Origin: Pyropia haitanensis
Lineage: Eukaryota > Rhodophyta > Bangiophyceae > Bangiales > Bangiaceae
Direction of reading: 5' to 3'
Assembly (NCBI GenBank): GCA_008729055.1
Contig: SDUX01000003.1
Coordinates: forward strand, 2,035,418-2,099,417
DNA length: 64,000 nucleotides
Below, piece after piece: positions 3,354 to 55,480 of this stretch. Below the pieces are notes generated by a model, which searched no databases, was not told the origin of the DNA, and saw only the letters and a list, made by a program, of their open reading frames with translations. A program made the position numbers and the translations under genes. Every line of letters starts with the position of its first letter. Position 1 is the stretch's first letter.

Positions 3354-3532
3354 CGCAAGTCGCGTGTTGGTGTTGCACGGGTTGCTTCCGGTGTTCCAAG
3401 TTGGGACCCGAGCGTGCGTGTTCCGCCCCCACAAGTTGTGGGTCGGCGTAGCCGTACTGCTACAGGGTGCGGCTCTCGACGGCGTCGCTCTACCAGAGCT
3501 CCACGCCTCTCCCGTGTCGGCCAGCGACGGTG

Positions 3533-28537: not shown

Positions 28538-28590
28538 ATGTAGTATCCAGGAATCTCAAACACACTGCAAAATTTTGCAGTGGGTGGTCG
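28538..28590 (+). repeat. Left terminal inverted repeat of the KDZ element
   Basis: Pairs with 46730-46783. The shared core is GAATCTCAAACACACTGC then GCAGTGGGTGGTCG. It contains the perfect 20-bp palindrome CACTGCAAAATTTTGCAGTG at 28563-28582. The outermost bases (AGTAT) are shared at both ends, with looser matching between them and the core. Confidence 0.9.
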
Positions 28591-30898
28591 CTGAGGAGCT
28601 CTGAGAGCGCGCCGTGCCCGTCGACGCACCACAGCGTCCGCTGGCCCCGGTCGGGCCAGCCCCGGGCCCCCAGGTCCCACGTGTGCCCCAAGAGCTACTT
28701 CATGCTACTTACCGTCCGATGTACTGTCGTTTCCATTACCCCGGTGGCGAGGCCGGGTGCCGGTGGCACGCTCCCGCCACCATGGCACCCCCGCTCCCGC
28801 CACCGCGCCGACCCCCCCCGCGGCCGTCGCTGCGCCCCGCCCCCGCCCCCCCCCGCCGCCCCGCCGCCCCCCCCCCCCCCCCGCCCCGCCGCATCCGCCC
28901 CCCCCCCCGCCCCGCCGCACGCCACCGCGGCCTGCCCGGGCACCCCTGCCCCCGCCCCGGCCGCCGCCACCGCCGCCGCGCCCCCGTCGGCCGCCACCCC
29001 CGCCGGCCGGCGCCGCTGCTGGCCGCCCGCCCCCGCCGGCCCCTGCACCCCTGCTGGCTGCCCGCCGGCCCCCGCACCCGTGCTGGCGGCCCGCCGCCGC
29101 CGCCCCGTCCCGCCGCCCCCGCTGCGGCCGCCGCCCGCCCCCGCCCGCCCCCGCCGCGGCCGTCAGCTGCCGGCCGCCGCCGCCGCCGGTCACCACCCGC
29201 CCCCGCCACGGCCACCGGCCGCCGGCCCCCGCCCGCCCCCGCCGCCGGTCGCCGGCCGCCGCTGCCGGCCGCCGGCCGTCACGGCCGCCGCCAGCCGCCT
29301 GGCGCCGTCGCCGGCGCCCGCCCGCCTCCGCCGCCGGCCGCCCGCCGCCGCCGCCGCCGCCCGCCCGCCCCGGCCGCCGGCCGCCAGCCGCCTGGCGGCG
29401 CCGCCGGCGCCCGCCCGCCCGCGCAGCCGGCCGCCCGCCGTCGCCGCCGGTCCCCGCCCGCCGCCGCCGCCGGTCCCCGCCCGCCCCGGCCGCCGGCCGC
29501 CGGCCCCCGCCCGCACCCGTCGCCGGCCGCTGGCAGCGGGCCGCCGCCGCCGCTGGCCGCCGCCCGCCCCCGCCGCCAGCTGCCGCCCGCCGCTGCCGGC
29601 CGCCAGCCGCTGCCGCCGCCGGCCGCCCCCGCTCCGCCGCGGCCGCCGGCCGACGGCCGCCGCCGCCGCCGGCGGCCATCGCCCCGCCGCGGCAGCCAGC
29701 TGCCCGGCGCCGCAGCCGCCGCCCCCCGCCAGGCCCTGCTGCGGCAGCCGCCAGCCGGCCGACGCCGCCGCCGGCCCCCGCCCGCACGCGTCGCCGGCCG
29801 CCGACAGCCGGCCGCCGGCCGGCGCCGCCGCACCGCGGCCCCCGGCTGCCCGCTGCCGCCGCCGCCGCCCCCCAACTGCCCACGCTACGGCAGCCGGCTG
29901 CCGGCCGCCACCGCCGTCGGCCGCCGGCTGCCCCTGCCGCTTCGCGGCTGTTTGCCGCCGCCGCTGCACCCCGCGCGCTCCGCGCGGCAGCCGCCGGCCG
30001 AGGCCGCGGGCGGCCGCCACCGTCCGCTGAAAGCCGGCCGCCGCCGCCGCCGCCCCCCGCCCCGCCCCCGCTGCGGCCACCGGCAGCCGCTGCTGGCTGC
30101 CGGCCGCCGGCGCAGCTGGCTTCCGGCTGCCGCTGCCCACTGCTCCCCCCCCGCCGCTGCCGCCTGCTGCTGGCCGCCGCCGCCGCCGGCCGCTGCCAGT
30201 CGCCTCCGCTGCCAGCTGCCCGCCGCCACCGCCACCCGTGCCCCGACTCGTGCCTTGGCTGCCGGCCGCTGCCTGTCGCTGCCGCCACCGCGACAGTTGG
30301 CTGCCGGCAGCCGCCGCCCCCCGCCGCGGCGCGCCCACGGCTGCTGCCGCTGGTGAATATCGTCTGCCGCAACCCCCGCCTTCTTTCTCCGCCGCGGCCA
30401 ACTGAGGCCGCCGTTGGCTGCCGGCCGCCGTCGCTATCTGACCCCCCCACGCCGCGGCTGCTGTCGAAGGTAGCTGTCAGCTGCCCACGCCCACCACTTT
30501 CCCCGGCCGGCCGCCGCTGCTGGCAGCCGGCTGCCGCCGCCCCCCGCCTCCCCACCGCCGCGGCTGCGGAGGCGGCCACCGCCGCCGGCTGCCACGCTCG
30601 CGGATGACCTGTTCGCCGCGCCCGCCGGTAGTCGCTGATTCACTGCAGTCACCGGCTGTTCTTCTTTCTGCGGCGAAGGCCGCGGCCGCAAGCTGCCGCG
30701 ACCCCCGACCGCCAGGCTTCTCCGCGCCCGGTGCAGCCAATAATCCTGCCGTTGCTTTGACTGATTTTACATCCCTGCTCACTTGCATGACGTGACTGCT
30801 TGACTTCATGGTACAAGTCACGCTCCGTGTGTGTCCTAAAGCGTGTCCAGCTTGCCCACAACATGGTCGTCATGAGGCACCTTGGAACGCACTTGGCT
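28591..30898. repeat. Subterminal GC-rich minisatellite inside the KDZ element
   Basis: About 28780-30600 is built almost entirely from irregular CCGCC/GGCCGCC-type units (recurring CCCGCCGCCGGCCGCC with variable spacing). Every frame on both strands is open for hundreds of codons, so the very long frames here are artefacts. The last 300 bases before 30898 are less repetitive and lie 3' of the transposase gene. No gene is recognised. Confidence 0.8.
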
Positions 30899-33800
30899 TT
30901 AATCTGCCTCGCTCCCGCCGGTACTCCCACTCCTTTCCTCTACGATAGCCCGCGCGCCAACCATCACTTCGCCACTACGGCCCCTCCCAAAAGGATCGCC
31001 CTCCTTGACCTGCGCACTGTCGTCACAAACCGCCGACTGCACCGCTGCGCCACCTGTCCCCCGGTCTGCCTCCACTCGGCGAGTTGCACTCGCCGAGCAG
31101 GTGCACTCGGACCGCACGCACGTGACCCCGCGCACGTTGTAGTAATACGCGTTCAGACGCACGCCGTCATTCTCGGCCTTGGCCGTCTCGCCCGTCAACT
31201 TGAATGCCGCGGTGAGGTTCATCAGGGACAACTGCGCGATGCGGTGCGCCATGAACGACGCGGGGGACATGTACGTCAGGTGGCCCCTAAACTTCACCGA
31301 CATTGAGTGCTGCACCTCGGCCGCCTGCGTTGATACGCAGTTCGTGACCGCCAACGCCTCGTCCGGGTTGTACACGCACGAGCACGTGTGCCCCTTCGCA
31401 TGCGCCCGGTCCAGGCAAAATCGTACTCCGTGGTGCGAGAGGATTGACCTCACGCGCTGCATCCCGTTGCGGTCCATCTTGCATGCAACGTCGTAAAATA
31501 CGACCTTCGGCAGGGCGGGGAAGCGCTCCAAAATGAGGGATAGCGCGTCCGCAACGCTCTCTGCCTGGAACATCACCCGAAAGCCCAAGGTGACGACGTG
31601 AGGGCAAACGATGTTGAACACTCCGGCCGTCAGCTGCGAGTGCTTGGGAAACGACTTGGCGCACCGATCCCCCGCGTCCTCCAGCGCCGCCTGAGACCCC
31701 TTCCGTGGTGCTGCCCCGCCCGCCTGCTGGCGCTTCCTCGCGTCCCGTGGCCTCGCCCGTGGCGCGAAAATGGCCGGCCTCACCCGCTTCAAGTAACCAA
31801 AGTACTCAAACGTCTTGTACGGCGAAGTGAGGTCTTGGTCTTTGAACAGCGGGTGCTCGGCCGCAAAACGTTCGTACTGCTCGGGCGTCGTCACGCCCAG
31901 CCACCGCTTGCAGAAATCGAGCGTCTCGGTCTGCCCCGCGTCAGACGCCTTCTGGGCGGCGATTTGGAAGTCTCTGTCAACTGCCGCGTCAACATCGACC
32001 GCGAACAACAGCAGCGCTCCAACAGACTTGCGAAGGGCGGGCTCCTTGCCCAGGAGCGGGCCAATACGCGCGAAAAAGTTGGCCACGAAGCCGACGGCGT
32101 TCGATGCGGTCAAAAGCTCGCGCCACCGCCCACCGTCCTCCTTCTTGAGCTCGTGGGCTAGCTCCCTTGGCGGCCCCCGCGGCTGACCGGCAAACAGATT
32201 CACGACGGGATCCCCTAGCAGCGCCAAGACAAACGGGCGAATCGTCGCCCACTCCGTGCCCGACGCGACAAAAGAGTCAAAGCGGGGGTGGCAAGTGCCC
32301 ACTCGCGCGCTCCACGGAACAGACACGGGTGCCACCGCTGGGGCATCGCCAAGCTGGCCGACAGGCACGCCTTCAGCCCTGGGCGCCGAGCCGTTTCTTT
32401 CAACAGGAGCGGCCGCTGCTCGACGTGCCGCAGCGGGGCCATTGCTTGGCTCGATATCACCACTGCCGGCCGCCCCAGGCCGCGCGCCAACGAGGTCGTC
32501 CGCTGACGTCCACTGAAAAAAGCGAAAGAAAAGCGTGGCGGCCTGACGCTTCAACTGCCAGTTCTCAATCGTAGCCGCTCTCTGCGACCGCGGCCGCACA
32601 GACGACATCGCGGCGTGCAGCTTGCCGAGCGCTTCCGCGTCGGTCTTGCTCAACGTGTTGCCCGTCTTGATGACCTTGCGTATGGCCGCTCTCATACTGG
32701 GCTCACGTATGACCGCGTAGTCGTCCACGTTCAGGTTCATACTTGGGAGGTGGAGGGCGGGACGGGAAACGCGGATGCCATCGCGCAGCTGGAAGCCCAA
32801 TGCCTGGCCGTCGATTACGATGTAGTCGGGGTTGAGGCCACACTTGGGGCACACGAAGAGCTCGGGCGTCGGCTGGAGGAGAGACACGAAGCACCGACCG
32901 AGCAGGACGATAAGCTGCCGACGCAGCCCGAAGCTTGAACGCAACGACGCCAAAAAGCAGGTGGCCGCAGAGTAAGAAGACCGAGAGTTGTACACAAACG
33001 ACATCAGGGTGTCACAAAAAGACCTCGTGAAGAGCATAACGCGGCCCGAGTCGTCCAACTTGCGAAGAGAGAACAATCCATCGTCCCCACCGTCGTACTG
33101 CACCGCATGCCCTTCGGAGCACGTCCATTCCCCAGTTGTTAGCTGACACAGAGACGAAGCAGAACAACCGAGAGCACATGACACAACGAAAGAGAAAGAG
33201 TCACCTGGCGTCAGTCCATGAACACACTGCAAGAAAAGCCCGCTCATGTCAGAAACACACAAGCAATGTACACACATACAAAACAACTAACATACCTCCA
33301 ATGGCGCCGCGCCATTCCCGTCGGTATACAGCACCGCCGGGGCCTCAACGGACGTTGCCCCTTCCGGCCGCAGTGCGCCACACTTGAAACATCTCTTCTC
33401 GCGGACGACGACGGACGGGTCGTAGGCGAGGCCGAGCTCCGCCATGCGCTCCACAAAGGTCTGCGGCTTCTCGTGCAGCTCCGATTGGTCGTCTGCACGC
33501 AGACTTGCGGGAGAAAATGTGGCGGCGGCGGGGACAGACATCGCCGAGAACTCCGCGGTTCGACCCCACATGAGCCCCTGCTTGTCCTCGTCGGCGCAAG
33601 CCACCAAATTCCGCTTCTGCCGCTCCTGGGAGATACTGACCAGCTCCTCCTCGATGAACACCTCGTCTTCATCCTCCTCTCGCTTCAATCTCCCACCATC
33701 CTCATCTGACGAGCTGTCTGACGGGTCGCCGACATCCCCGCCGGCCACAGCCAGACGATCGAGCTGTCGCACCAAAGTCGCATGGTGGCAGCGACGCTGG

Positions 33801-34684
33801 GAGGATCTGCACCCAACCGCAATACACTTAATCAGTCGCCGCCTCGTAGCCACGACCGGGCTGTAGATCACGCCGTCAAACGCGGCGGCAGCTGCACCTC
33901 GAAACGTCGAGATGTCCACGGCGTACGGCTGCGTGTCTGCCGCCAGGCGGAGGAACCGCGAGAGCTCAGCGTCGTACTCGGCGAGATCCGCGACGGCTGC
34001 CTTGAACGCCTCCGCGTGCCAGCACGTACTGTCCTGCCCAGCCATCGACAGCAGCGCCACGTTCTCAGTGTTGCCCCAGCATGAGCAGAGGGTGGCACCG
34101 TCCGGGGAGAGCCACAGTGCAGCCATGTCAACCGCGTGGGGCCCGGTCACACAAAAAATGAAGCGCGAGTGGGAAGAGGCAGCGTCGACAACCTGGGCCA
34201 TCATGCCGCTCCCAACCGTGGCGCCAACCAGCGTCCGCATCCCCAGCAGTCTCCGCAATGCAGCCAAAATTAGGCTAGAAAGCACGCGCAGTCGCTCGAC
34301 GGTCGACTCGCCGCGAGTGCGACCACCAGGCCGACGAAGATGGCGAGCCGGTCGACGGCCAGCAGTCGGCCTGGGAGCGGGGGATGTAGTACCCTCAGGT
34401 GCATCAGAATCGCCACTGGCGCTGGGTGAAGGCAGAGGGTCCGAGCCCAAGTCATCCTCGTCCTCGTCAGAGGACGAATAAGAGGCGGGAATAGTTTGGG
34501 TGGAGAGGAAGGGGACAGGGGGCAGGCGAGAGCGCACGACGGGCTCCACGGGCACAGTCCGCGCAGCGAGCGACCTCGCCGCCCGTGTCGTCGAGGTAGC
34601 GAGGCGGAGCAGCCCCAGCGTTCCCAGCTGCGTCCGCCGGGATCGCAACGTCGAGTGGGCTGCATCGCAGGCGTAGTCGTCCAT
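30899..34684 (-). CDS. KDZ-superfamily transposase with N-terminal Cys cluster (one 69-bp intron)
   Basis: Join of 34684-33296 and 33226-30899. An in-frame TAG at 33287 is removed by an intron with donor GAG|GTATGT and acceptor TTTTCTTGCAG (33295-33227), giving about 1,238 residues. The start MDDYACDAAHS is chosen as the first Met in good context; an upstream Met at 34759 is possible. A Cys-rich module follows (KRCFKCGAL, then C..HG, C..GC, WTCSEGHAVQYDGGDDGLF), as in CxC clusters that accompany KDZ transposases. Then come FVCPKCGLNP and the first catalytic Asp in YIVIDGQALGF, a second Asp in VVFYDVACKM, the metal-type HAKGHTC, and the Glu in TQAAEVQHS. The core NIVCPHVVTLGFRVM is typical. 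It would cut and rejoin at the element's inverted repeats. Confidence 0.85.
33227..33295 (-). other. Intron in the KDZ transposase gene
   Basis: 69 bp and phase 0. The donor GTATGT directly follows GAG. It has a T-rich 3' half and the acceptor TTGCAG. It contains the only stop codon interrupting the transposase frame. A second optional GT...AG segment (about 33208-33145) also keeps frame, so further splicing is possible. Confidence 0.75.
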
Positions 34685-35870
34685 GGTGATGAGGCGTGTA
34701 GTGCGGCACACGGCCGGACGGGCAGCCGCGCCGCGGCCGGCGGTGGGGAGGGGGAGCACGGCGGCCCCCCACGACGGGGGCGGCGGCGACGGGGGGGGGG
34801 ATCGCCCGTGTCACCGCGACGCGAAAGTAGATGGCAGCGGCTGGACGTTCGTACGCGATACGGGGGGCGGCGACAGCGGCGGGGTGGGGTGGGTGTACGT
34901 CCAGGACGCGCGCAGTGGCGGCGGTGGCGGCGGTGGTGGTGGGCGCGCACCTCTTGCGTGCCAGGCGGCCCGTGCAGCCAGGGGCACGGTCCGTCGCGAA
35001 TGCGGCACCAAGCCATGATCAGCGAAAGAAACAGTTGTACTTTGAAATATTTACGTTTCTCGAGAACAAATGCGCCATGTCGCACCCCTGCGATTGTCAG
35101 ACAGATGTCCTAAAAAGCTTTCCGATTATGGATCTGGCTTGGGTGCACCAATCACCGCCCGTGCATCACTCACAAGCGTGACCCCTGCGCAGGCCACTTT
35201 ACAATCACGCCCCCTCTGGTTGTGCGGACCGGCACGACTGCCGGGCGGCCCAACGCAGAAGGACTAATGTACTTCCGACACTTAGACGACAGGCCTTCGG
35301 GCAAAATCAGCCCGCCTGCCCGGCGAGTCGCTCGTTACGTGCGAGTGAGGGCGGTTCCGAGACCGTCTCGTTGTCCTTCCTTTCGTTTCCACTCCACGTG
35401 CCGTCCCGCCCGGCGCCACCCCCTGCGTCGATGGACTCATCGGACACCCTTTGATGAGCATTTGCAAGCCAGCGCCCCCCCCCGACATGTAAGCACCGGC
35501 CCAAGCCCGCTTCTGATTCCACCTCTCTTCCTCATGGCGCTCCACCTCACAGCTCGGCTAGCCGTGCTGCTTCGCCCAGCGCAGCCTTGGCCCCGGCCTT
35601 GCTGGGAGACACGGCGCTGACGCCCGTATCCCTGGGCACCGATGCTGACTTGGAGAGGTACGACGTGCTGATTTACGTCGTCGACAACTTCGGCTACACA
35701 TGGTCGGGTGCGCATGGCGATCTCATGCCTGGGCGTTCCCGCCCGCCGCGCCCGGGAGGCGTCGCTCTAGTCGGGCGTAGCGGCAGTCTGAGGCCACGCC
35801 AGTCGGCGCGGAGTGGGAGGGGTTGCAGCCAAGGGTGGAGCCGACGTCGCGGCGAGCTGGTACTGCGGGT
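34685..35870. promoter_or_regulatory. Upstream region of the KDZ transposase gene
   Basis: No gene is recognised. Bases 35030-35220 are conspicuously less GC-rich than the flanks and include CCAAT on the plus strand (35147-35151). This is a plausible promoter for the minus-strand transposase, but no experimentally defined signal can be assigned. Confidence 0.3.
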
Positions 35871-37210
35871 GGTGGAGGCCGCCGCAGAGTGCTGGTGCTG
35901 TGGGTGGGGGCGGCCGCATCAGCTTGCTGATGCTGGGGGTAAGTGTGGCCGCCCAACCGTTCTGCTGATTTTGGTGGAGGTGGCCGCCCAAAGGAGCTGA
36001 TGCTGTTTATGGAGACTGCGGCGCAAGCGTGCTCGTGCTGTTCGTGGGGGTGGCCGCACAAGTGTGCTGGTGCTGTTGGTGGGCGCGGCCGTGTGAGGTG
36101 CTGGCGCTGTCCAAGGGGCCGGTAGTCCCAGCGCGCCGGTCCTGCCGGTACGTGCGGTCGCTCAACTGTGCTGGTCCTGCGAGTCGGGGCGGCAGCCGCA
36201 GGGCGCCGGTGCTATTTAAGGCGGCCAGGGCAATGTGCTAGTGCCGCTTGTTGCGGCAACAACGCGAGCGTGCCGGTGCTACTGCTGGTGGCGGCCGTCC
36301 CAGCGTGCTGGTGCTGTGGAAGGGCGCGTCCGTCCCAGCGTGCAAGTACTGTGGGTGGGGACGACCTCCCCAGCGTGCCGACTCTGCCGGTAGGGGCGAA
36401 CCCGCAAGCCTGGTGGTGCTGTGGACTGCGGCGGCCGCCCCGGCGCGTCGGTACTCTCCGTGGGGGCGGCCGCCCCCGCGTGCTGGCGTTGTGGACTGGG
36501 GCGGCCGCCCCGGCGCTTCGGTACTCTCCGTGGGGGCGGCCGCCCCCGCGTGCTGGCGTTGTGGACTGGGGCGGCCGCCCCGGCGCGTCGGTACTCTCCG
36601 TGGGGGCGGCCGCCCCCGCGTGCTGGCGTTGTGCACCGCGGCGGCCGCCCCGGCGCGTCGGTGCCGTCAGTGGGGGCGGCCGCCCCCGCGTACTGGCGTT
36701 GTGGACTGGGGCGGCCGCTCCGGCGCGTCGGTGCTGTCCGTGGGGGCAGCCGCCCCCGCGTGCTGGCGTTGTGCACCGCGGCGGCCGCCCCGGCGCGTCG
36801 ATGCCGTCAGTGGGGGCGGCCGCCCCCGCGTGCTGGCGTTGTGGACTGGGGCGGCCGCCCCGGCGCGTCGGGGCTGTCAGTGAGGGCGGCCGCCCCCGCG
36901 AGCTGGTGTTGTGGACTGGGGCGGCCGCCCCGGCGCGTCGGTGCTGTCCGTGGGGGCGGCCGCCCCCGCGTGCTGGTTTTGTGGACGGGGGCGGCCGTTT
37001 CAACCTGCAGGTGCTGTGGGTGGGCGCAGCCGCGCTCGCGTGCTGATACTGTGAGTTGGGACTGCCGCCACGACATGATTGAGCTTCTGATCGGGGCGGT
37101 CGCTCAAATGCGCTCGTTCTGTGCGTTGCGGCGGCCGCGCCAGCGCGCCGGTGCTGTTCATGAGGGTGGCGGTCCCAGCCTTTGGTGTGCAGGATGGGGC
37201 GGGCGCCGGT
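35871..37210. repeat. 35-bp / 70-bp minisatellite with a GCGGCCGC core
   Basis: Tandem 35-bp units organised as 70-bp dimers. At 36421, 36491, 36561 and 36631 the same phase recurs every 70 bp. Most units carry the 8-bp palindrome GCGGCCGC or a one-base variant. The central copies (36420-37000) are nearly identical; the outer ones, from about 35,880 and to about 37,210, are progressively diverged, as expected for an array homogenised from the middle. Because 35 is not a multiple of 3, the encoded repeats shift between frames. Confidence 0.9.
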
Positions 37211-39578
37211 ATGTGACCCTGAATCTGTCTGCCGCAGCCGGCGTCGGGATCTTTGGCAAGGCGGGTGGAATGGGGGAATATCGTTCGGGAAGGGGAGGTC
37301 GAGCTGATGGGGGAGGTGTTGTGGCCAGAGGCGGGAACAGTTGGGCGACGTTGATGTGGCGTTCGCAGCTGTCCGTTGTGGGAACCGCGTGTTGAGTGGT
37401 TTGTGAGCGGGTGAGGGGGGTGGCGGGATTGTCCCGCCGCGCGCCATGGGCCGCTGTGCGGTTTTGTGCTCTGTTGTGCGATAGCGCCATCTACGGGGTA
37501 CGAACAGCGACGCACTTCTTCCTGGCTGCGTCCAGCTGAGACGAGCAGCTCTCAAGGGCGCGAGAACACTTAGGCTAGCGGTCGGGACAAAAAATAGCAC
37601 AGTCGAAGATGCCTTGGCACCGCCGTGGAGGAGCCATGCACGCATGGCCCCTGACCCAGTACTGCGTGACTGATCCAGTGCAATCGGATTGCGGCACTTG
37701 CTGACACTGGTCCACTTACTGGATCACGCACCTGCGCTTCTTGGGATGCGTGTGTGCGCCCCTATAGCACGTCCCACAGGTTATGTCAAAGAAAGACACC
37801 TCAGCACGTTTTTTGCGATGCACTGCGTCCGTTTGCAACACTCACGACTGTGGTTCGACCAAAGTGCTTGCTCCGAGGTTCCCCCACCCAGCCTGTCGAA
37901 GCCAAGGGTGCAGGGCGCCCGTTCCGACCAAAAATGGACCAATCGACGCCTCCAACAAGAGGCGCCCTATTGCACAAATGAAGTGCCCTGAGCATGGTGG
38001 TGTCGTTTTTTTCTCTCGCAAAGACGTCCTTCATGTCTTTCTGGGCGGGCGCGTATTCTGCACCACCAGAGGCTTGGCAGCCGCGCAGGTCGCCGAACCT
38101 CGTCGGACTTCCCGTTTTTTGCACTTCAGAGCTGCTACCTTCATAGAGCTCGGACCCTCACCGAGAACATCTGCGAAACTAGTGAGTACCACAGTTTTAC
38201 GACGCTTTTCGCATGTAGCGCTGCACAAAACCTTCCCGCCGTGCGCATGACACCGGTTGCTGCGCTACGTGTCAAAAAGCGATATCAGAGGCTCGGTAGG
38301 ACCCCTCATCAGAACATAATCCATTTTCTTCCGCTCATCCGCGTCGTACAACAGGCGCAGTGGGCCTCATGTGTCAAACAGAGGCCGTCCATGGCAGGGT
38401 CACTGCCTTGCTCCCAGCACTTCAATCGACACCGTTTTCTGCTAGAAGCTTCCACAGGTCGCTGGGTAACCGCAGCATCAGTCATTGGGTCTTCTATTGT
38501 CTCCAACAACTGCCCAGAGGCCAGCGTGCACTGTAGATGGCCGCGGAAAATGACATTTCCGGTGCTAGAGCGCGCCCGAACTAGCGTGAGACCACATGAG
38601 TCACACAGGAATGGCTCTGAAACTCCCTTATCAGTGGGACGTCAAAAAAAGAGGGAATCTCCAGCAGCAACTGGGTCATTCTGGCGGCCGCGTACTGGCA
38701 TGTGCACACATATGAGTGCGTGAGCCTGGTCAGAGCCGCGTCAGCTCTCAGCCCGGATTGTCGTGGGGAGATGGTGCTCCCAGATGGTTACACGAGCACA
38801 AAATGTAGGACTGGGCTGCATAAATGGTGTTGCTCATCTGTCGCTGTTGACGTCCGCTGCGGTAGGATGTGACAACAGGAAGGGTTGGAAGAGCAAGCCG
38901 AGCATGGTCACCAGCCAGGGAATTCCGCACCGGCCCCCGCAATTCTGTCGGATTCTGAGGAACATTCCCCTTCTATTTCGGGAACTTTGTCACACTGCGT
39001 TCGCCGGCCCCACTGGCTGCAGCTCAATAACGGCCTGCCACGTCAAGGGCGCCAGACGCGTTGCCGCCTTTTTTTTGCCGGCCATCTCCCCCCACTCTGG
39101 GCGCCACTCCCCCACCGTTCCCCGCACTGTAGGCGCCTTTTCCCGCCTTACCCCGCACGCTGGGCGCCACTTCCCCGCCTCACTCCCCTGCCCCAGCAGT
39201 TTGAGGGGGTGGAACTGTACGCTCGACTGCTCTGTTCGCCACCAATGCCGCTGCACCCTCCCTGGCCCCCCCCTCGAGGTCTTGCCTAGGGGGCATCTCC
39301 GCGCGTGCTCGCGCCGGGACCGTCCCACCTGCGCCCTCCATTGTGCCGCCTCTCCGCGCGGCGAGCGGCTCTGCCTGGCGCAATCTTCGAGGTCTCCATC
39401 CCCGAGGCTTCGCCAATCTCGCACCTCTGCACCCTCCGGCGTCCCCCTCGTTGGAGCCCCTCGTCCGACCGGCGGTTTCGCTCGCCAGGCCGCTTCTGGC
39501 GCGGCCAGTCGTGACCTTCGGCGCCTGTTCTTCCCCCCATTGCCCCCCCCCCCCCCCGCTGTATCATCTGGTTCAACC
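37211..39578. other. Spacer inside the KDZ element, AT-richer, possible Cys-rich short frames
   Basis: About 37450-39000 has a markedly lower GC content than the rest of the window. Short open frames on the plus strand at 37783-38250 and 38241-38723 contain paired Cys/His spacings (for example CRSQGC and CPEHG), but they match no family I can name. The minus strand of 38309-38640 also reads as a Cys-rich peptide. From 39030 the DNA becomes C-rich and leads into the helicase gene; it probably includes its 5' UTR. Confidence 0.4.
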
Positions 39579-42209
39579 ATGACGCACCGGGTGCACGCCG
39601 AGCGGCGTCGGGATCTCGTGGCGTACGACATGTCGTTTGTCGCACTGCGGTGGGACACGGGCGGCGTGCTGGCGAGCGCCACCGACTCAGTCGACTTGGC
39701 ACGGTTGATGATTGCATGGACCCAGTTGGACCGGGACGCTGGGCTGGTGTCTACGTTTGCGACGAGCGGCGCGGCGTCATCCTGGTTGTCCGCGTCGCCG
39801 CCGCCGCTGCCTTTGTGGGCGGCGCGTACGTGTGTCGTGGCGGAGGACACGGCAGTCGTCATCGTCAACGAGGTGACGGACTCCTCACCGGTGTTTGGTC
39901 TGCTCCGTGAGGCCGGAGGGCAGCTGGCGGCGGAGAAAAACTCGTCGCTCATCCCCCGGCTGATAAACACCGTCAAGGCTCTCAACGGGGAGATTGCGGT
40001 GGTCCGTATGCTGTCGTCCGTGGCTGAGGCTGAGCAGTGGTTACTGTCGCCGAGCCTTCCCAGCTGGCTATTGGCGCCTGACACGGTGCCGTCTACCGCT
40101 TGGGTGTCCAAGAAGGACGAGGTCGCCGTCGTAGCGGTAGAGACTGCCGACGGCGTCATCAACCTATGTGACGATGACACTATCGAGGAAGATGCAGAGC
40201 AAGCGGCTCGAGTGGAGTTTCGGCGCGTAGCGCAGGCGCTACCCCCCCCCCCGCCCCTGAAGCGTACCATCCTATCGCTGGCCAGCATCCGTGACTCGAT
40301 GACACTGCCGGTGGTGTTTCAGCGCAACCCTGCGACTGGACGAGTGGTCCGGACGGACCGGATGGGTCGCTCTAGTAGTCGTTCAAGCTTGTCGTCGGCG
40401 ACTGGTGCATCATTGCTCACCCCCCCCTCGCCGGCGCCGTCTCGCTCGTCCGTCGCAAGTGAGACGCCGCTTATCACGGGGCGTCGGGCTCCGGTGCGGG
40501 GCTCCACTCCCCACTCGGGTCCATCACAGTCGGTTACAACTGGTGCCTCTCCCCCGCCCGGCTTGTTGGCGTCGCTCAAGAGCGCAAGCGAGTTGCGATC
40601 GACCACTTCGAGGCGGTGGTCAGCCTCGAGAGGCATGCACGAGAGCGGCAGCAGGTCGCGGACGCCCGCTGGCGGGGAGCTCCTCTCGAAGCGACCGTCC
40701 CCACCGCCCCAGACGTGCACTCCTCTGCCGACCCCCCCCCCCCCCCACGGCGGTCCCCCAACCAAGAAGCTGCGGCGAGCGGAGGCGGTGCCGTTCCACT
40801 TGGGACGCTTGGCCAAGAGCATCCTCGGGCGGAAGAGCGGGCTGTTTGTGACTGGTGGCGGGGGGGTGGGCAAGACGCGGGTGTTGCGCCAATGCGCGGA
40901 CGAATACCGCGATGCTCGCAGTGGCAGCCGCGCTGGGCTCCACGTAGTCGCACCGACTGGCGTGGCGGCGGCTGCCGCCGGCGGCGTCACCATCCACTCG
41001 TACCTACGCCTGGCGGCCGGGTGCTTTGACGAGTCCTTGTCAGAGGAGGATGACGCTGCGCGCCTGTTCAGCTGCATGGACGGGCTGACGAAGAGGCGAC
41101 TGGCGGACACCTCCGTCTTGTTGCTCGATGAGGTATCAATGGTGTCCAGCCGGATGTTCACCATGCTGGTGTACTCCATTGAGATGGCGCATACCCAGGT
41201 GAGCGACTACTTGCCGTGGCGCCTTGTAGCTTTTGGCGACTTCTTCCAGCTTCCTCCTGTCCGCGGGGATGAGGACCACTATGACAGCAGCGGCCAATAC
41301 GCGTTCAAGTCTGTCTACTGGAGGCGGTTGTTCCGGAACGAGCAGCTGCAGTTGCGGTACGTTTGGCGGCAAGAGGACAAGAAGCTGATTGGGATGCTAT
41401 CCCGCTTACGTGTTGGCGACCTCTCAAGCGATTTGGACAACTTTTTGCGGTCGCGATCGGCCGTGTACCAGGCACGCGTGGAGGCCGGCGTCGTGATGGA
41501 CATGGGTGTGACCCGCATCTTCCCGCACCGCCATCGTGTGAAGGCGCACAACGCGGATTGTTTGGCATCCATGGAGAAGCTGAATGGGTGTGCACGGGTG
41601 GTGTACACAGCTATCGACTACCCGATCGGCGTCAGCATGACGGAAGATCAGGTCACTGCTCAGCTTGACGCGTCTGTGCTGGCGCCCAAGAAGCTTGAAG
41701 TTTGCGTTGGCGCTCGTGTTGCGGCTTGTGCTACTGTTGGCGACGGCCAGGTGGAGGTTCCTAACGGGACCGTTGGTACGGTCATCGGCTACCAGGGCTC
41801 TTCCGCGCACAGCTTGAACGTCCAGGCTACCAGGGTTCCTGTCGTCCGTTTTGATACGGTGCGGGGTCCGGTCGTCATGACGGTTAAGCAAGTCGACATG
41901 AAGCTGCAGTCCGTCTCTCGCGACGGCGCGTACGCCAGCCGCTACCAGGTGCCGCTCGTGCTGGCGTGGGCGGTGACTGTTCATCGATGCCAGGGGCTCT
42001 CCATGGACGCTGCGGTGCTTGATTTGGCGTCTTGCTTTCTGGACGGGATGGTGTACGTTGCATTGTCGCGCGTGAGGTTCATGGAGGGCGTGCACATCCT
42101 GTCGTTTGCCAGCAACAGAGTGCGTGCCGACCAGCGCGTGGCGTTGTTTTACGAGAAGCAGCGCGACGTCGAGAACGAGTTTTCTTCCTGCGTGGACACG
42201 ATGCGCTGA
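39579..42209 (+). CDS. Pif1-like superfamily 1B DNA helicase
   Basis: 876 residues from the ATG at 39579 (AACCATGAC); the frame is open farther upstream but low-complexity. The N-terminal 270 residues are unrecognised, and a Ser/Pro-rich linker follows. The helicase core has motif I VTGGGGVGKT (about residue 427), motif Ia VVAPTGVAAAAAGGVTIHS, motif II LLLDEVSMVS, and motif III LVAFGDFFQLPPV. Next are the Pif1-signature-like ELQLRYVWRQED region (seen as NEQLQLRYVWRQ), motif V WAVTVHRCQGLSMD and motif VI VYVALSRVRFMEGV. Pif1 enzymes unwind DNA 5' to 3' and resolve G-quadruplexes. It lies inside the KDZ transposon in opposite orientation to the transposase and converges on the next gene. It could be cargo that helps replicate or repair the very G-rich element, or a captured host gene. 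Confidence 0.88.
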   Translation: MTHRVHAERRRDLVAYDMSFVALRWDTGGVLASATDSVDLARLMIAWTQLDRDAGLVSTFATSGAASSWLSASPPPLPLWAARTCVVAEDTAVVIVNEVTDSSPVFGLLREAGGQLAAEKNSSLIPRLINTVKALNGEIAVVRMLSSVAEAEQWLLSPSLPSWLLAPDTVPSTAWVSKKDEVAVVAVETADGVINLCDDDTIEEDAEQAARVEFRRVAQALPPPPPLKRTILSLASIRDSMTLPVVFQRNPATGRVVRTDRMGRSSSRSSLSSATGASLLTPPSPAPSRSSVASETPLITGRRAPVRGSTPHSGPSQSVTTGASPPPGLLASLKSASELRSTTSRRWSASRGMHESGSRSRTPAGGELLSKRPSPPPQTCTPLPTPPPPHGGPPTKKLRRAEAVPFHLGRLAKSILGRKSGLFVTGGGGVGKTRVLRQCADEYRDARSGSRAGLHVVAPTGVAAAAAGGVTIHSYLRLAAGCFDESLSEEDDAARLFSCMDGLTKRRLADTSVLLLDEVSMVSSRMFTMLVYSIEMAHTQVSDYLPWRLVAFGDFFQLPPVRGDEDHYDSSGQYAFKSVYWRRLFRNEQLQLRYVWRQEDKKLIGMLSRLRVGDLSSDLDNFLRSRSAVYQARVEAGVVMDMGVTRIFPHRHRVKAHNADCLASMEKLNGCARVVYTAIDYPIGVSMTEDQVTAQLDASVLAPKKLEVCVGARVAACATVGDGQVEVPNGTVGTVIGYQGSSAHSLNVQATRVPVVRFDTVRGPVVMTVKQVDMKLQSVSRDGAYASRYQVPLVLAWAVTVHRCQGLSMDAAVLDLASCFLDGMVYVALSRVRFMEGVHILSFASNRVRADQRVALFYEKQRDVENEFSSCVDTMR

Positions 42210-42626
42210 TGGCAGGTAGTCTCGCACTTGGTGTCGGAGTCTCTATCTGCATGACGTACTCGTTCCTCTGCCTCCTTTGATGGCTGCAAGCGTACAATTG
42301 TATGTTGTTCTCGTTTTGATAGTCTTTGATAATGTTGTTGGCTGCTTTTGAGCAGCGCTGTCTCTCTGGTCTTCGTCGGCAAACATATGGAGAACCGCAG
42401 CACAGTGTGCGTGTAGCTCTCTTGTACACAGACTCGTAGAGACGCCTCCCTTATGAGGCTTGTATTCTCTTAAGGACACCGTCCTGTGCTCTGATCGAGC
42501 GTCAAGGCATGCCAAGCAAGGCTCATCAATAAGGTATTTTCTCCATGGCGTGACGGCAAGAGACGCACTCGAAAAACAGAACGCCTGCACGCAACCACGA
42601 CGCCCGCCAGTTTTCCAACACTCGTC
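42210..42626. other. Convergent 3' region between helicase and repeat-protein genes
   Basis: About 420 bp of AT-richer DNA separates the two stop codons. It presumably holds both 3' UTRs and terminators. No other gene is recognised. Confidence 0.5.
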
Positions 42627-45600
42627 TCACTGCGCCACCGTAGTAGATGTGGGGACCACCCCTTCCAAAGTACCAGCCGCCTTCCCACCCGAAGCGACAA
42701 CCTTACGGCCAGCCTCACCCCCATTGCTCTCGATGATTTCTGTTCCAGCGGAGCCGCCATCTACCGTCCCGCCTGCACCGCCGGCCGTGTTACCGCTGGC
42801 ACCGGTTTCCTGGCGACGCGCCGCGTCCCGACTAGGAGCCGCGCCCGATGACCTACTCGCATCCTCACGGCGAGGAGTGCCCCCACCCCCGGGCAAGCCG
42901 ACGCTGCCACTTGCGACCCCAGTGCCGCCCGCGCCCGAACTGCCAGGCGTGTCGCCACCCCTAGCCGCTACCGAGGTGCCTGCCACATGATCTTGTAGAC
43001 CCTTGCGCGCGCTTGCGCCAGCCTTAGACCTCTTGGGTGCTCGAGCACTTGAGCCGCCCGGAGGTGTGGAGCGCTTGCGAGCACCAGCAGGTGGGCGGTT
43101 GCCGGTCGTAGCCGTGCTGCCGACCGCGTGCGCGACGGCGTGCTGCCTGCGGACGGCGCGCCTCACAGCAAGCCGACTGGCACGCTTGTCTGCCGCCGCG
43201 CGGATGGCGCGCATGATGTACGCTGCTTCCACGGAAGCGTTTGCATTCTCCTGGAAGCCGTCGCCGTCACCAGGAGGTCCACTACCAGCGCCTGCGTCGT
43301 CACCTCCAGTCCCCGCCGCACCACCGCCTGTGCCCACTCGGTCGGCTTGACGACTGTCGTCACCACTGCCGACTGGAGGGCTAGGGGCCGCAGGGCGACG
43401 TGCAGCGTCGGCATTGTTGACAACGGCGGCACCTTGCGCCGCTACCGCACCGTTTCCGGGTGCGCCACTATCACGAGCTTCGTTTTCTTGGTTGGCAGCG
43501 GGCGCGGCGTCGGTCACTGTCGCCGCCTCTGCGGTCGCCGCCGCAGGGCCCACGCCGCCGCCCACGTCCGTACGCTGGACGCTATCAGGCTTCTCGGGTT
43601 GGACGTCCAGCCCGGAAAGAACAAGAGAAGAATGGCGCGCCGGCCGAGCCTCAAACGATGCCTCCAGCGTCTCGGCGATAATCCTCGGCATTTCCTCTAC
43701 AATAGAGCAGAGCAAAAGGAGTACTGCAATGACGTCAGCGATACCCTTACTTTTGAAGACGGTGATGGCGGTGATGATGACAAAGTCGTCGACGCTGCCA
43801 AGCTTCAGCCGCCTGGACGCCAGCGCTGGCACGTCAAAAGCCGCCTTGATGCCCGTCATTCGCACACGGGGGCACCAAAGCGAGCGGTTCTTGTCGACCG
43901 ATACAGTGCCCAAGGGGTTTGCCATCGTGCCTGCCGGTGCCGGCGCCTTGCCCGCCCTGGGGCTTTTCCACGTCGGCAGCGCCGAGCTCCGCAAGTACGC
44001 AACGAGGTAGCCAAGTACGAGGGTTGAGCGGCTCATGCCAGCTCCCGACGCCGCATCTGCGGGCGTGTCCTCGACTTCACCAGCATCTTTAGCGTTGCTG
44101 CTCTCGCTAGCAGTAGGGGCTGCACCAGCGTCGGCCCTGGACACCGCAGCCGCGTCTGCAGCGTCCTCCTGCGTAGCTACGGCGGACGAGCGCGCGTTGC
44201 CAACGGACCTACCGCCGCCGCGCCCAGGTACCACGCCAGCGGTAACGGTGGCCGCTTCCGCGGCCACTACGGTCGTTGCACCAGCTGAATTTTCGCCGGC
44301 GGCGCCGTCCCGTGTCCCGCCGGCTGTCTCGGTACGTGGCCCAGCAGACTCATTGGCCGGCGCTCTAATAGCGGCCGCGCCAATGGCATTGCTGGCCGCC
44401 AGCCCATCCGTCCCGACGGCCGTCTCGCCGGCCGCCCCGCCCGCGGCGCCACCGGCCGCCGCGGCGGTCGACGGATTGGCCGCTGTGCCTCCCGCCTGGC
44501 CACGCACCTTGCCGTCCTCCCCACCTCCCGACACGCCGCCCACTTGTCCGCCTGCATCGCCGCCGGCATCGCCGCCCGACGGGCCGGCAGCCTCACCGCC
44601 GGCATCGCCACCCGACTCGCCGCCCACCTGGCCGCCTGCATCGCCGCCGGCATCGCCGCCCGACGGGCCGGCAGCCTCACCGCCGGCATCGCCACCCGAC
44701 TCGCCGCCCACCTGGCCGCCTGCATCGCCGCCGGCATCGCCGCCCGACGGGCCGGCAGCCTCACCGCCGGCAACGCCACCCGACTGGCCGCCCACCTGGC
44801 TGCCGGCGTCGCCGCCCGACTGGCCGCGAGCCCCGCAGCCGGCGTCGCCACCCGCTAGGCCACCAACCTCGCCGCCGCCATCGCTACTCGCATTGCCACC
44901 AGCATCGCCGCCCGCCGTGGAGCTCGCGTCGCGGCCCGACTGGTGGCCCGCGTCGCTGCCCGCGTCGCTACCCGCCTCGCCGCGCCGCTCGTCACCCGAC
45001 TCGCCCCCTGCATCGTCGCCCGCCACTCCGGCTGCGCCACCAACTGCTCCCTCATTCTGGCCGCCCGCCGCGTCACGCACCGCGTCGCCGGCCATCGTGT
45101 GACCCACATCGCCGGCCGTATTGTTATCCGAGCCGCCGTCCGAATGGTTGACCGTCCCGCCGGCAAGGGTGCCGGCTGCATTGCCGACTGGGTCAACGGC
45201 CACAGCCGCTGCGTAGCCCCCGGCGCCTGGGGCTACATCGATCACCCCCGCCAATGTGGCCTCGGTGAGGCCAGCACGAGCAATAAGAAACGCCTGGAGA
45301 GCGGTACAAGCGCGGAAGGCAATGACACGGCATAGGGAAGCAGGATTGGGGGACGCGGCTACTGCGGCAATCACTGCCTTAGCGGATGACAACGCCGCCG
45401 AGTTGGGAACACAGATGGGGGGGCGCACCGCAGAAAATGCAACGCGAGCGCGCAAAGCAGGCAGCGTCATCATCAGCGACGGAAGGAGCGGCGCAGCCCC
45501 AGCCATCCGAGCGCCATGGACAGTGCCACCTTCCGACTCCCCAACTCCGTCCTGCAAGCGACGCGAGTGGGCCATGAAGCGGTCACCCTCCCGGCCCACC

Positions 45601-45920
45601 GCAGCAATAAGAGCGTCCGCCGCCTCCTTCCGCCACACGTACCGCAGCGCCGCATCAACGAGACGGGCTACGTTGGAGTCGTCGACGTCAAACAGCCCAA
45701 CACGATCATACACAGAAACCCAGTAAACGCTGGTCACAGGGCTGTCCCGCTTGGTGTTGGCACGACTCACCGCCCCATGAACGCTCGCGTCCAGCGGCGT
45801 CAACACACGCTGGAGGCGTTGAGCTGCAGCCAAGAAGTCGTTGAGGAAGGGGGCGATCTTCTCCCTGGTTCGCTCGTCCGTGATGGCCAGGCCCTTCAGC
45901 GCCTCCTCAAAGCGCTCCAT
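42627..45920 (-). CDS. Large protein of unknown function with perfect 28-residue Gly-rich repeats
   Basis: 1,097 residues from MERFEEALKGLAIT at 45920; a longer frame to 46046 lacks support. No family is recognised. The N-terminal 270 residues look globular (FLNDFLAAAQRLQRVL, VYWVSVYDRVGLFDVDDS, YVWRKEAADALIAAVG). A Gly-rich middle has GGDAGG/GGQVGG tetrapeptide periodicity, including three tandem 84-bp DNA units (44551-44800) encoding an identical 28-residue repeat. A second folded-looking block follows (VLGYLVAYLRSSALP, LGSVDDFVIITAITVFKSKG, DVIAVLLLLCSIVEEMP). The C-terminal third is disordered, with a basic stretch (ADKRASRLAVRRAVRRQH, GARKRS, PKRSK) that looks like a nuclear-localisation or nucleic-acid-binding patch. 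It is located inside the KDZ element and converges on the helicase gene. It may be an accessory transposition or DNA-binding protein, but that is inference. Confidence 0.6.
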   Translation of the reverse strand: MERFEEALKGLAITDERTREKIAPFLNDFLAAAQRLQRVLTPLDASVHGAVSRANTKRDSPVTSVYWVSVYDRVGLFDVDDSNVARLVDAALRYVWRKEAADALIAAVGREGDRFMAHSRRLQDGVGESEGGTVHGARMAGAAPLLPSLMMTLPALRARVAFSAVRPPICVPNSAALSSAKAVIAAVAASPNPASLCRVIAFRACTALQAFLIARAGLTEATLAGVIDVAPGAGGYAAAVAVDPVGNAAGTLAGGTVNHSDGGSDNNTAGDVGHTMAGDAVRDAAGGQNEGAVGGAAGVAGDDAGGESGDERRGEAGSDAGSDAGHQSGRDASSTAGGDAGGNASSDGGGEVGGLAGGDAGCGARGQSGGDAGSQVGGQSGGVAGGEAAGPSGGDAGGDAGGQVGGESGGDAGGEAAGPSGGDAGGDAGGQVGGESGGDAGGEAAGPSGGDAGGDAGGQVGGVSGGGEDGKVRGQAGGTAANPSTAAAAGGAAGGAAGETAVGTDGLAASNAIGAAAIRAPANESAGPRTETAGGTRDGAAGENSAGATTVVAAEAATVTAGVVPGRGGGRSVGNARSSAVATQEDAADAAAVSRADAGAAPTASESSNAKDAGEVEDTPADAASGAGMSRSTLVLGYLVAYLRSSALPTWKSPRAGKAPAPAGTMANPLGTVSVDKNRSLWCPRVRMTGIKAAFDVPALASRRLKLGSVDDFVIITAITVFKSKGIADVIAVLLLLCSIVEEMPRIIAETLEASFEARPARHSSLVLSGLDVQPEKPDSVQRTDVGGGVGPAAATAEAATVTDAAPAANQENEARDSGAPGNGAVAAQGAAVVNNADAARRPAAPSPPVGSGDDSRQADRVGTGGGAAGTGGDDAGAGSGPPGDGDGFQENANASVEAAYIMRAIRAAADKRASRLAVRRAVRRQHAVAHAVGSTATTGNRPPAGARKRSTPPGGSSARAPKRSKAGASARKGLQDHVAGTSVAARGGDTPGSSGAGGTGVASGSVGLPGGGGTPRREDASRSSGAAPSRDAARRQETGASGNTAGGAGGTVDGGSAGTEIIESNGGEAGRKVVASGGKAAGTLEGVVPTSTTVAQ
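44551..44802 (-). repeat. Three 84-bp tandem repeats within the unknown gene
   Basis: Units start at about 44551, 44635 and 44719 with only a few base differences. Each is in frame and encodes the same 28 residues (GGDAGGQVGGESGGDAGGEA plus eight more). This is consistent with recent in-frame expansion. Confidence 0.9.
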
Positions 45921-46729
45921 GACAGGAGATAGCCCGAATCCGCTCCTTCCGGAGAGAGGCACGCCAACGAGAGAAGTTGGGCGGCGACAACAGCTGCACA
46001 GGCGTGCCGGACGAGCGGGCGGGAAATGAGAGGCCTCGCCGGCCACGCGGCTTCCAAGTGAAGCGGGGGCCGTTCGGGGGCTCCGGCACAGCGGAGGGGA
46101 GGTGGGCGGAGGAACCGGCTGTCCGGTGGCACCGGGCTGCTCCTACGTCCGGTATCGGGCAAGGGGTCGGGCGTGGTCACCACGCGATCTTGGCCACCGG
46201 CCGACAGGGGGTGGGAGGGGGGCGCCACCGGCTGCGCGGTGGAGGTCCAACGGGGTGGGCCGAGGGCGCGGTGCGAGAGAAAGATGGGAGGGGGGGGGAA
46301 TCCGCTGTGCGGGAAACAGCCACAGAGGTGGGCCGACGGCGCGGTGTGCGATGGGGGTCGGAGGGGGGGGCACCGGTTGCGCGGGGGAGGCCCAGACGAG
46401 TGGCCGAGGGGGGTTGGACAACGCCATGGCTGGCGAGGCGGAGGTACGGGCTGCTCGTTGCAAGGCGCCAAGACGCGGAGTCCGCCAGAGGGCGCGCGGG
46501 CCGACAGCATCCTCAAGCCGGTGCCTCCTGAAGGCGGGCAACCTGCTCTTGTGCAGCCGACGGCAAGCCGTGTGGCTGCACAGCCCTTCTGGTCATGCGC
46601 CCCGGTGGACGGTGGCGAGTAACTGTACAATTTCCATTACCCAATTCTCCCTGGACCCCCCCCAACAACACCCCCAACCCCCCCTCCCACGTGGCGCGCG
46701 CGGAGCGCGCCCCCGCCCCCCCCCCCCCA
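45921..46729. other. Right subterminal region of the KDZ element
   Basis: G-rich, with several loosely repeated motifs on the plus strand (CACCGGNTGCGCGG and GGTGGGCCGANGGCGCGGTG near 46225-46390). It probably includes the promoter of the minus-strand unknown gene. It ends in a C-run next to the terminal repeat. No gene is recognised. Confidence 0.45.
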
Positions 46730-46783
46730 CGACCACCCACTGCGTTTTTTTGCAGTGTGTTTGAGATTCTCAAATACTGCCTC
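46730..46783 (-). repeat. Right terminal inverted repeat of the KDZ element
   Basis: Reverse complement matches 28538-28590. It has the same CACTGC...GCAGTG near-palindrome (46738-46757), here with a GTTTTTTT centre, followed by TGTTTGAGATTC. The differences from the left end cluster in the palindrome centre and the outermost dozen bases. Confidence 0.9.
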
Positions 46784-46792
46784 CCGTCCTCC
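46784..46792. repeat. Candidate target-site duplication, right copy
   Basis: CCGTCCTCC, identical to 28529-28537. The surrounding DNA is C-rich, so an accidental match cannot be fully excluded. Confidence 0.6.
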
Positions 46793-55225: not shown

Positions 55226-55480
55226 CGCCACCAGCAGATGAACGCAGGCGTGGAAAAGAAGAGGGTGGGGGGGGGGGGGGTGGTGGGATGGTGGAGAGGG
55301 GGGCGTGGGGCACGTGAATAGGGAAGGGGAGGGCGGGGGGGGGGGAGCTGGAGAGTGGGAGTGGGAGATGGAGGTTGGCTTGACAGGTCAACGCCCGGGC
55401 TCAGAAGTCCATCCCCCGCCTGTCTGCTGGAGCGCCCCGCCCCCCCGCCCTTCCCCACCCCGCACCCCCCTCACAGGGTG

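What the first reader, a model, noticed from the sequence alone, without database searches (positions are those of the whole stretch)
28538..46783. An 18-kb KDZ transposon that carries a Pif1-like helicase and an unknown repeat protein
Matched inverted termini plus a 9-bp direct repeat enclose a KDZ transposase, a complete Pif1-type helicase and a 1.1-kb-residue unknown protein. KDZ elements are known mainly from fungi and some animals and algae. I do not know Pif1 as a standard partner of a KDZ transposase; Helitrons and Cryptons are better known for helicase association. The element is dominated by G/C-rich arrays that should form G-quadruplexes, and Pif1 is the canonical G4 helicase. This suggests, as inference, a self-serving role in replicating or repairing its own arrays.
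Basis: partly seen in the sequence, partly recalled or inferred. Interest (0 to 1): 0.88.

Follow-up and report, generated by a model that had tools for sequence, protein, structure and literature searches.

The report
Jumping gene with its own helicase
An 18-kilobase "jumping gene" of the KDZ kind, in what is likely a red seaweed, sits in two near-identical copies at different places and carries, besides the enzyme predicted to move it, a DNA helicase gene and a third gene whose relatives sit beside related transposase genes elsewhere in the same genome, so the helicase is likely a lasting working part of the element, perhaps for repairing or copying it, rather than a passenger.

Summary
The element is real. 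Window 28537-46783 (18,247 bp) has 54-bp inverted ends (43/54 identical) and an 8-bp, not 9-bp, target duplication. A second copy on contig C9 is 99.90% identical with a different 8-bp duplication, and three unoccupied paralogues of that C9 site exist in the same genome. The element encodes a KDZ transposase (1,238 aa, one predicted 69-bp intron), a Pif1-family helicase (876 aa) and a 1,097-aa protein of unknown family.

The partnership is not accidental. Of 19 Pif1 matches in the genome, 10 lie within 15 kb of a KDZ match (0.46 expected under uniform placement). All 5 families found in the window's KDZ clade have Pif1 within 14 kb, against 0 of 7 KDZ rows tested outside it. Six of 7 loci of the third gene are KDZ-Pif1-third-gene trios. 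Transposase and helicase trees share their supported pairs.

The G-quadruplex idea is not supported: the element has no more G4 motifs per kb than its flanks.

Best reading: a KDZ lineage with an inherited, dedicated Pif1, which likely serves long repair synthesis that restores or copies the big element. This is a new variant of giant, gene-carrying KDZ transposons; the helicase's role is untested.

The parts
28529..28536 (.). left target-site duplication CCGTCCTC (8 bp)
   Evidence: copy 2 has GAAGCTCC on both sides
28537..28590 (+). left terminal inverted repeat, 54 bp, with the 20-bp palindrome 28563-28582
   Evidence: 43 of 54 identical to the right end; palindrome
28797..30233 (.). C/G-rich simple array next to the left end (91% GC)
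30899..33226 (-). KDZ transposase gene, exon 2 (catalytic part; PF18758)
   Evidence: frame open in both copies
33227..33295 (-). predicted intron, 69 bp, GTATGT...TTGCAG
   Evidence: identical in copy 2; no transcript evidence
33296..34684 (-). KDZ transposase gene, exon 1 from the first ATG of the frame
35852..37052 (.). tandem array, 35-bp unit (70-bp higher order), between the divergent transposase and helicase genes
   Evidence: same copy number in copy 2 (no gap there)
39579..42209 (+). Pif1-family helicase, 876 aa; two small predicted N-terminal domains, linker, helicase core from about residue 405
42627..45920 (-). third gene, 1,097 aa, no known family; conserved N-terminal and central blocks, in-frame repeats, basic C-terminal helix
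46730..46783 (-). right terminal inverted repeat, 54 bp, with the imperfect palindrome 46738-46757
46784..46791 (.). right target-site duplication CCGTCCTC

Best explanation
This is an 18,247-bp KDZ-superfamily DNA transposon with inverted ends and 8-bp target duplications that encodes, besides its transposase, a Pif1-family helicase which likely promotes the long repair synthesis needed to restore or copy so large an element, and a third protein predicted to bind DNA. Shown: two copies with different 8-bp duplications, an unoccupied paralogue of one insertion site, transposase and third-gene frames open in both copies, an open helicase frame with its conserved motifs in the window copy, and the recurrence of the gene set in divergent families of the same genome. 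Inferred: the transposase cuts at the 54-bp ends and inserts with an 8-bp stagger. The donor gap is then repaired from the sister chromatid. Element-encoded Pif1 drives the moving D-loop of that repair, as Pif1 does in break-induced replication, so that the whole 18 kb is recopied at the donor site and the copy number rises. The third protein, mostly disordered with a basic helix, would bind the ends or the array, or tether the helicase to the element.
For: Mobility: second copy with other flanks and its own 8-bp duplication; three unoccupied paralogous sites, one read across the junction, 58 of 60 identical with the 8-mer once. Partnership: 10 of 19 Pif1 places within 15 kb of a KDZ place, 0.46 expected, 8 of 15 after my own collapsing of copies. 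Five of 5 families of the KDZ clade have Pif1 within 14 kb, 0 of 7 rows outside have one within 20 kb. Third gene: 6 of 7 loci, or 4 of 5 families, are trios. Shared history: C11 and C7 are closest for all three genes (60, 52 and 34% identity) and are sisters in both trees, and the C7b locus falls on the window's side in both. Database relatives: exact contig lengths shared by Pif1 and third-gene relatives (2) and by KDZ and Pif1 relatives (2), 0.004 and 0.07 expected. Conservation: Walker A and B residues invariant in 27 aligned helicases (motif names recalled). Role: Pif1 acts with Pol delta and PCNA in break-induced replication (PMC13237216, start of abstract in the listing).
Against: The helicase's role is inferred; no call tests it. 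In the C9 copy the helicase frame is broken by a one-base difference in a C run (possibly a sequencing error), yet I cannot say whether that copy moved before or after. Six of the 13 substitutions between the copies lie in the helicase gene (positions). KDZ elements elsewhere in this genome lack a near Pif1, so a KDZ transposase does not need one. In C11, C7 and C4 the gene orientations differ from the window. The proximity test assumes uniform placement and does not control for clustering of mobile elements.
Confidence: 0.4

Rival explanations
1. One reading: Pif1 unwinds G-quadruplexes formed by the element's own G/C-rich arrays so that it can be replicated.
For: Pif1 is a known G4 helicase (PDB titles); the left array has 5 G4 motifs and the element has 13 against 4 expected from a Markov model; an outer part of the C11/C6 segment is G4-rich (L046, 23 in 10 kb).
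Against: Element density (0.71 per kb) is half that of the left flank and like the right flank; 2 motifs in 20 kb around the C7 trio and 9 in the first 20 kb around the C11 trio; none in the two arrays tested besides the left one.
Confidence: 0.07
2. The helicase is part of the transposition reaction itself: it opens the ends or unwinds a joined intermediate, as the helicase half of Helitron proteins does.
Against: KDZ rows outside this clade have no near Pif1; DDE-type cut and paste with target duplications needs no helicase in known systems (recalled).
Confidence: 0.2
3. Helicase and third protein act on the host: they alter host repair or silencing in the element's favour, like the TET/JBP genes of fungal KDZ elements.
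For: Fungal KDZ elements carry TET/JBP genes thought to counter silencing (PMC12730594, passages); the third protein has a conserved basic helix.
Against: No chromatin or methylation domain was found in the four proteins scanned or in third-gene relatives.
Confidence: 0.15
4. The two extra genes are passengers captured by chance that are kept only because the copies are young.
For: The two copies differ by only 0.07%; the C9 helicase frame is broken; accessory genes of giant KDZ elements are mostly of unknown function (PMC12477816, passages).
Against: Recurrence in 5 families with helicases 30-52% identical, long open frames in distant relatives, invariant helicase motifs, congruent pairs in trees.
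Confidence: 0.1
5. The trio, with its tandem array, is a replicating extrachromosomal element that integrates by a KDZ transposase.
For: All four trio families examined have a tandem array near the transposase or helicase gene.
Against: No polymerase, primase or capsid-like domain in the four proteins scanned (other frames of the element were not scanned); tandem arrays are common in this genome.
Confidence: 0.08

Closest known systems
KDZ (Kyakuja-Dileera-Zisupton) DNA transposons, above all Zisupton
   Same: KDZ transposase domain, terminal inverted repeats and 8-bp target duplications (Zisupton per PMC12730594, passages), large size
   Different: carries a Pif1-family helicase and a conserved third gene; likely red-algal host
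Giant KDZ elements of Ectocarpus (up to 30.3 kb) and a 31.7-kb active one of Chlamydomonas
   Same: size class and accessory genes (PMC12477816, passages)
   Different: their accessory genes are described there as mostly of unknown function; the passages seen name no Pif1
Fungal KDZ elements with TET/JBP dioxygenases
   Same: a KDZ transposase with a lasting enzyme partner (PMC12730594, passages)
   Different: partner is a helicase, not a dioxygenase
Helitrons (Rep plus Pif1-like helicase)
   Same: mobile element with a Pif1-like helicase (PMC4289320, passages)
   Different: here a separate helicase gene beside a DDE-type transposase, inverted ends and target duplications; no Rep domain in the four proteins scanned
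Cellular Pif1 helicases (yeast, human, bacterial)
   Same: core with the same fold and motifs
   Different: pair of small predicted N-terminal domains and a long linker; lies on a branch apart from the genome's Pif1 genes that are not near KDZ (98/97)

Membership tests
KDZ superfamily | KDZ transposase domain | tested here: met
   PF18758 30.5 bits over cut-off 26.6; same in the C9 copy
KDZ superfamily | conserved catalytic D, D, E | tested here: met
   D136 in 15 of 15, D603 and E634 in 16 of 16 filled rows of 17 KDZ sequences; that these are the catalytic residues is recalled
KDZ superfamily (Zisupton type) | 8-bp target duplication | tested here: met
   CCGTCCTC and GAAGCTCC at the two copies, single GAAGCTCC at an unoccupied paralogue; type per PMC12730594
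KDZ superfamily (Zisupton type) | terminal inverted repeats | tested here: met
   43 of 54
Kyakuja subgroup | 7-bp duplication, CA..TG ends and no inverted repeats | tested here: not met
   8 bp, CA..TC ends, inverted repeats present (subgroup features)
Zisupton or Dileera subgroup | position in a KDZ tree with named members | not tested
   no named KDZ references were in the tree
Pif1 helicase family | PIF1 domain with Walker A and B | tested here: met
   PF05970 54.9 bits over 25.9; motifs at residues 426 and 514, invariant in 27 rows
Pif1 helicase family | 5'-3' unwinding, G4 or D-loop activity | not testable with these tools
   needs purified protein
Helitron | Rep (HUH) domain | tested here: not met
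   no Rep domain among Pfam matches of the four proteins scanned
Helitron | no target duplication and no inverted ends | tested here: not met
   both are present; the defining feature is recalled
RNase H1 hybrid-binding / viroplasmin-like domain (helicase N-terminus) | strand-strand-helix-strand-helix fold and family match | tested here: inconclusive
   predicted order of elements fits (the likeness is recalled), but no Pfam or PDB sequence match and the domains were not fold-searched alone

The most novel reading that the evidence does not exclude
A whole KDZ lineage carries its own replication-repair kit: a dedicated Pif1 that grips the donor break through a tandem pair of hybrid-binding-like domains, and a third DNA-organising protein. 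Together they turn cut-and-paste into effectively replicative transposition by enforced long-tract gap repair, which is what lets DDE elements of 18 kb and more persist.
Probability: 0.22. Interest if true: 0.85.

Novelty: new variant of a known kind. Interest (0 to 1): 0.62.

Why it matters
How very large cut-and-paste transposons keep intact copies is an open question: the longer the element, the harder it is to restore after excision. A transposase lineage that has kept a Pif1 partner through deep divergence (helicases 30-52% identical between families in one genome) offers a testable answer, and adds a mobile source of Pif1 genes besides Helitrons. The two young copies, with the insertion site of one known in unoccupied form, give exact ends and an exact duplication to build assays on.

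Tried and rejected
Rejected: Helitron (no Rep domain in the scanned proteins, target duplications present). Segmental duplication as the source of the two copies (different flanks, different 8-mers). A stop-split, broken transposase (the stop lies in a clean 69-bp GT-AG intron). A G4-dominated element.

Led nowhere: viral-contig scans for helicase and transposase (1 and 6 pattern matches, no relative confirmed). Rfam on the window at gathering scores: 0 matches. Pfam at E up to 10 on helicase N-termini and third-gene relatives: one match, below its cut-off. PDB sequence search for the third protein: best E 0.62. Its model has 906 of 1,097 residues under pLDDT 50 and was not fold-searched. The structural match list for the helicase covers residues 403-830 only. 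The far boundary of the C11/C6 relative: one shared end at C11:4059250, the other not found; identity runs into a scaffold gap at C11:4091153, so whether that segment is a giant element or a duplication is open; no partner of that end within 3 mismatches in the genome. No inverted ends were found for the C7 relative in 20 kb. The unoccupied form of the window's own site was not sought (poly-C flank). No dN/dS was run. The other long frames of the element (for example 36212-37723) were not scanned for families.

Paper searches. One search found no paper with KDZ, transposon, helicase and Pif1 together in the held open-licence library, which lacks most subscription papers. The Bostrychia paper on giant red-algal EnSpm elements, cited in PMC12477816, was not read.

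Count caveats: whole-genome counts are lower bounds. A partial third gene and Pif1 behind the scaffold gap on C11 (about 4,091.7-4,094.2 kb), seen, are not in the lists. That stretch and the KDZ at C11:4099732 match the C11 copy with gaps but no substitutions, so they may be an assembly duplicate; I labelled this KDZ 'other', which is why that call counts two changes of the label and not one. Helicase tree: of 19 genomic Pif1 places 11 are in the tree, one fragment (C9:6368840) was fetched and dropped, four are copies of places in the tree (two of them judged so by identical scores only), and three (C4:2146964, C8:4591037, C11:6633833) were not fetched; six database relatives were added. The 7 outside KDZ rows are a subset of the 52 matches, taken from fetched loci. 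Third-gene database search: 8 matches, of which 4 are relatives and 4 low-complexity or unrelated proteins.

Full report
What is there. The window is C2:2035418-2099417 of a 52.9-Mb genome in 136 contigs. A search for a 22-nt core of the terminal repeat with up to 2 mismatches found five places: both ends here, both ends of a second copy on C9, and one end on C6, where the left 1.8 kb of the element survives at 73% identity.

Boundaries. The two copies align over 18,251 columns at 99.90%, with 13 mismatches and 5 gaps. Outside, the flanks differ. The window copy is flanked by CCGTCCTC on both sides, the C9 copy by GAAGCTCC on both sides; hence 8 bp, and the element is 28537-46783. The C9 copy sits in a repeated sequence: its joined flanks match three other places over all 152 bases at 98, 97 and 95%. 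The one that I could read, 60 bases on C6, is 58 of 60 identical across the junction and has the 8-mer once; the other two were not read. The ends are inverted repeats, 43 of 54 identical; the best of 200,000 random pairs had 38. Each end holds a subterminal palindrome, a plausible transposase site (inference).

Do the genes travel together? Pif1 in the whole genome: 19 matches. KDZ: 52 matches with the window's transposase and 10 with the Pfam model. Ten of 19 Pif1 places are within 15 kb of a KDZ place, where 0.46 would be expected under uniform placement; 8 of 15 after collapsing copies by my own judgement. Clustering of mobile elements is not controlled for. I read two divergent KDZ-Pif1 loci (C11, C7) and found the third gene next to Pif1 in both, tail to tail as in the window, although the transposase points the other way relative to that pair. 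A whole-genome probe with the C11 third gene's N-terminal domain gave 8 matches in 7 loci, of which 6 are trios (window, C9, C11, C6, C7, C4), that is 4 of 5 families; one, C11:5750595, has no KDZ or Pif1 match near it. The C4 trio was read; there Pif1 and the third gene point the same way. The fifth family of the KDZ clade (C7:3566368, here C7b) has Pif1 but gave no third-gene match. Identities fall in the same order for all three genes: C11-C7 60, 52 and 34%, against 37-38, 30 and 30-32% with the window.

Trees. In the KDZ tree the window's transposase forms a clade with C7b, C7, C4 and C11 (100/100; C6 is a near-identical copy of C11), all with Pif1 within 14 kb; the seven KDZ rows outside have none within 20 kb. 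The order of the three subgroups inside the clade is not resolved. The Pif1 tree puts the helicases of these families on one branch (98/97), with C11 and C7 as sisters and C7b on the window's side. Three further KDZ places far from this clade (C9:2519472, C8:4486651, C4:2142962) also have a Pif1 within 8 kb. The two helicases read there are 53% identical to each other and lie apart from the window's branch, so the partnership is either older still or arose twice.

Other genomes. Among database proteins, Pif1 and third-gene relatives share exact contig lengths twice (9509, 14406), and KDZ and Pif1 relatives twice (15518, 15578); smeared lengths give 0.004 and 0.07. KDZ and third-gene relatives share none. 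The contigs could not be opened, so this is indirect.

G-quadruplexes. Thirteen motifs in 18.2 kb (0.71 per kb) against 1.47 and 0.76 in the flanks; all three exceed a first-order Markov model (element 13 against 4.0, left flank 42 against 13.1, right flank 13 against 2.7). The 70-bp array and the repeats of the third gene hold none. The gene-bearing stretches of relatives are poor (C7: 2 in 20 kb; C11: 9 in 20 kb), but an outer stretch of the segment shared by C11 and C6 is rich (L046, 23 in 10 kb).

Mechanism. Shown: a mobile element, recent (0.07% divergence), with a recurring helicase partner. Inferred: Pif1 serves long repair synthesis after excision. Pif1 works with Pol delta and PCNA in break-induced replication (PMC13237216, start of abstract in the listing), and a large element has most to gain from it. 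A role in excision or strand transfer, or against the host, is not excluded. That 6 of the 13 substitutions and a frame break fall in the helicase gene could mean that one copy's helicase is already decaying.

Known ground. Zisupton makes 8-bp duplications, and fungal KDZ elements carry TET/JBP dioxygenase genes (PMC12730594, passages). Giant KDZ elements up to 30.3 kb are reported in Ectocarpus, where accessory genes of giant elements are mostly of unknown function, and an active 31.7-kb KDZ of Chlamydomonas is cited there (PMC12477816, passages). Zisupton and Kyakuja are in Chlamydomonas relatives (PMC8226300, passages). In the giant-transposon review a term search found no KDZ or Zisupton (PMC6431247). 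Helitrons have a Pif1-family helicase domain (PMC4289320, passages). No paper in the held library combines KDZ, transposon, helicase and Pif1; this does not show that nothing is in print. Verdict: a new variant of a known kind.

Noticed in passing
L051 (C9:2522801-2524500), L052 (C8:4477801-4479500), C4:2146964: A second KDZ-Pif1 association: three distant KDZ places with a Pif1 4-8 kb away; the two helicases read form a lineage of their own.
   Followed up: partly
window 35852-37052; L041 4303-4827; L044 7122-8491; L043 4808-5778; L050 3746-5097: All four trio families examined have a long tandem array near the transposase or helicase gene, with units of 35, 177, 171 and 115 bp; copy number differs between the C11 and C6 copies (2.8 and 7.7). 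Could be binding-site arrays; tandem arrays are common in this genome.
   Followed up: partly
C11:4059250-4091152 and C6:2922997-2965370 (L040, L041, L046, L049; L044, L045, L047, L048): The C11 and C6 relatives share a near-identical segment of at least 32 kb with one sharp common end; behind a scaffold gap on C11 another copy follows that differs by gaps only: a giant element, or partly an assembly duplicate.
   Followed up: partly
window 40732 and C9 copy (L007): The C9 copy's helicase frame is broken by a one-base difference in a C run, and 6 of the 13 substitutions between the copies fall in the helicase gene.
   Followed up: partly
L009 (C6:2639947-2641756): A degraded relic of the left 1.8 kb of the element at 73% identity, with the end still recognisable; none of the genes found in the 10 kb read.
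   Followed up: yes
L059; C6:3787951, C9:1355673, C10:3393942: The C9 insertion lies in a repeat family, so unoccupied sites exist in the same haploid assembly.
   Followed up: partly
window 3452-6448: A 998-aa open frame with a weak AAA_19 match (E 0.0023, under the cut-off), perhaps another helicase-like gene.
   Followed up: no
window 11082-12965 and 21467-23311: Two frames with FG-GAP and UnbV_ASPIC repeats about 10 kb apart in opposite orientation, likely paralogues.
   Followed up: no
window 55453-56192: A 311-bp tandem repeat, 2.4 copies at 94% match.
   Followed up: no
C8:1251418, C11:3615301, C11:5313767 (L058 read): Another Pif1 gene in three places with identical scores, the nearest KDZ match 37 kb or more away, perhaps on another kind of mobile element.
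   Followed up: no
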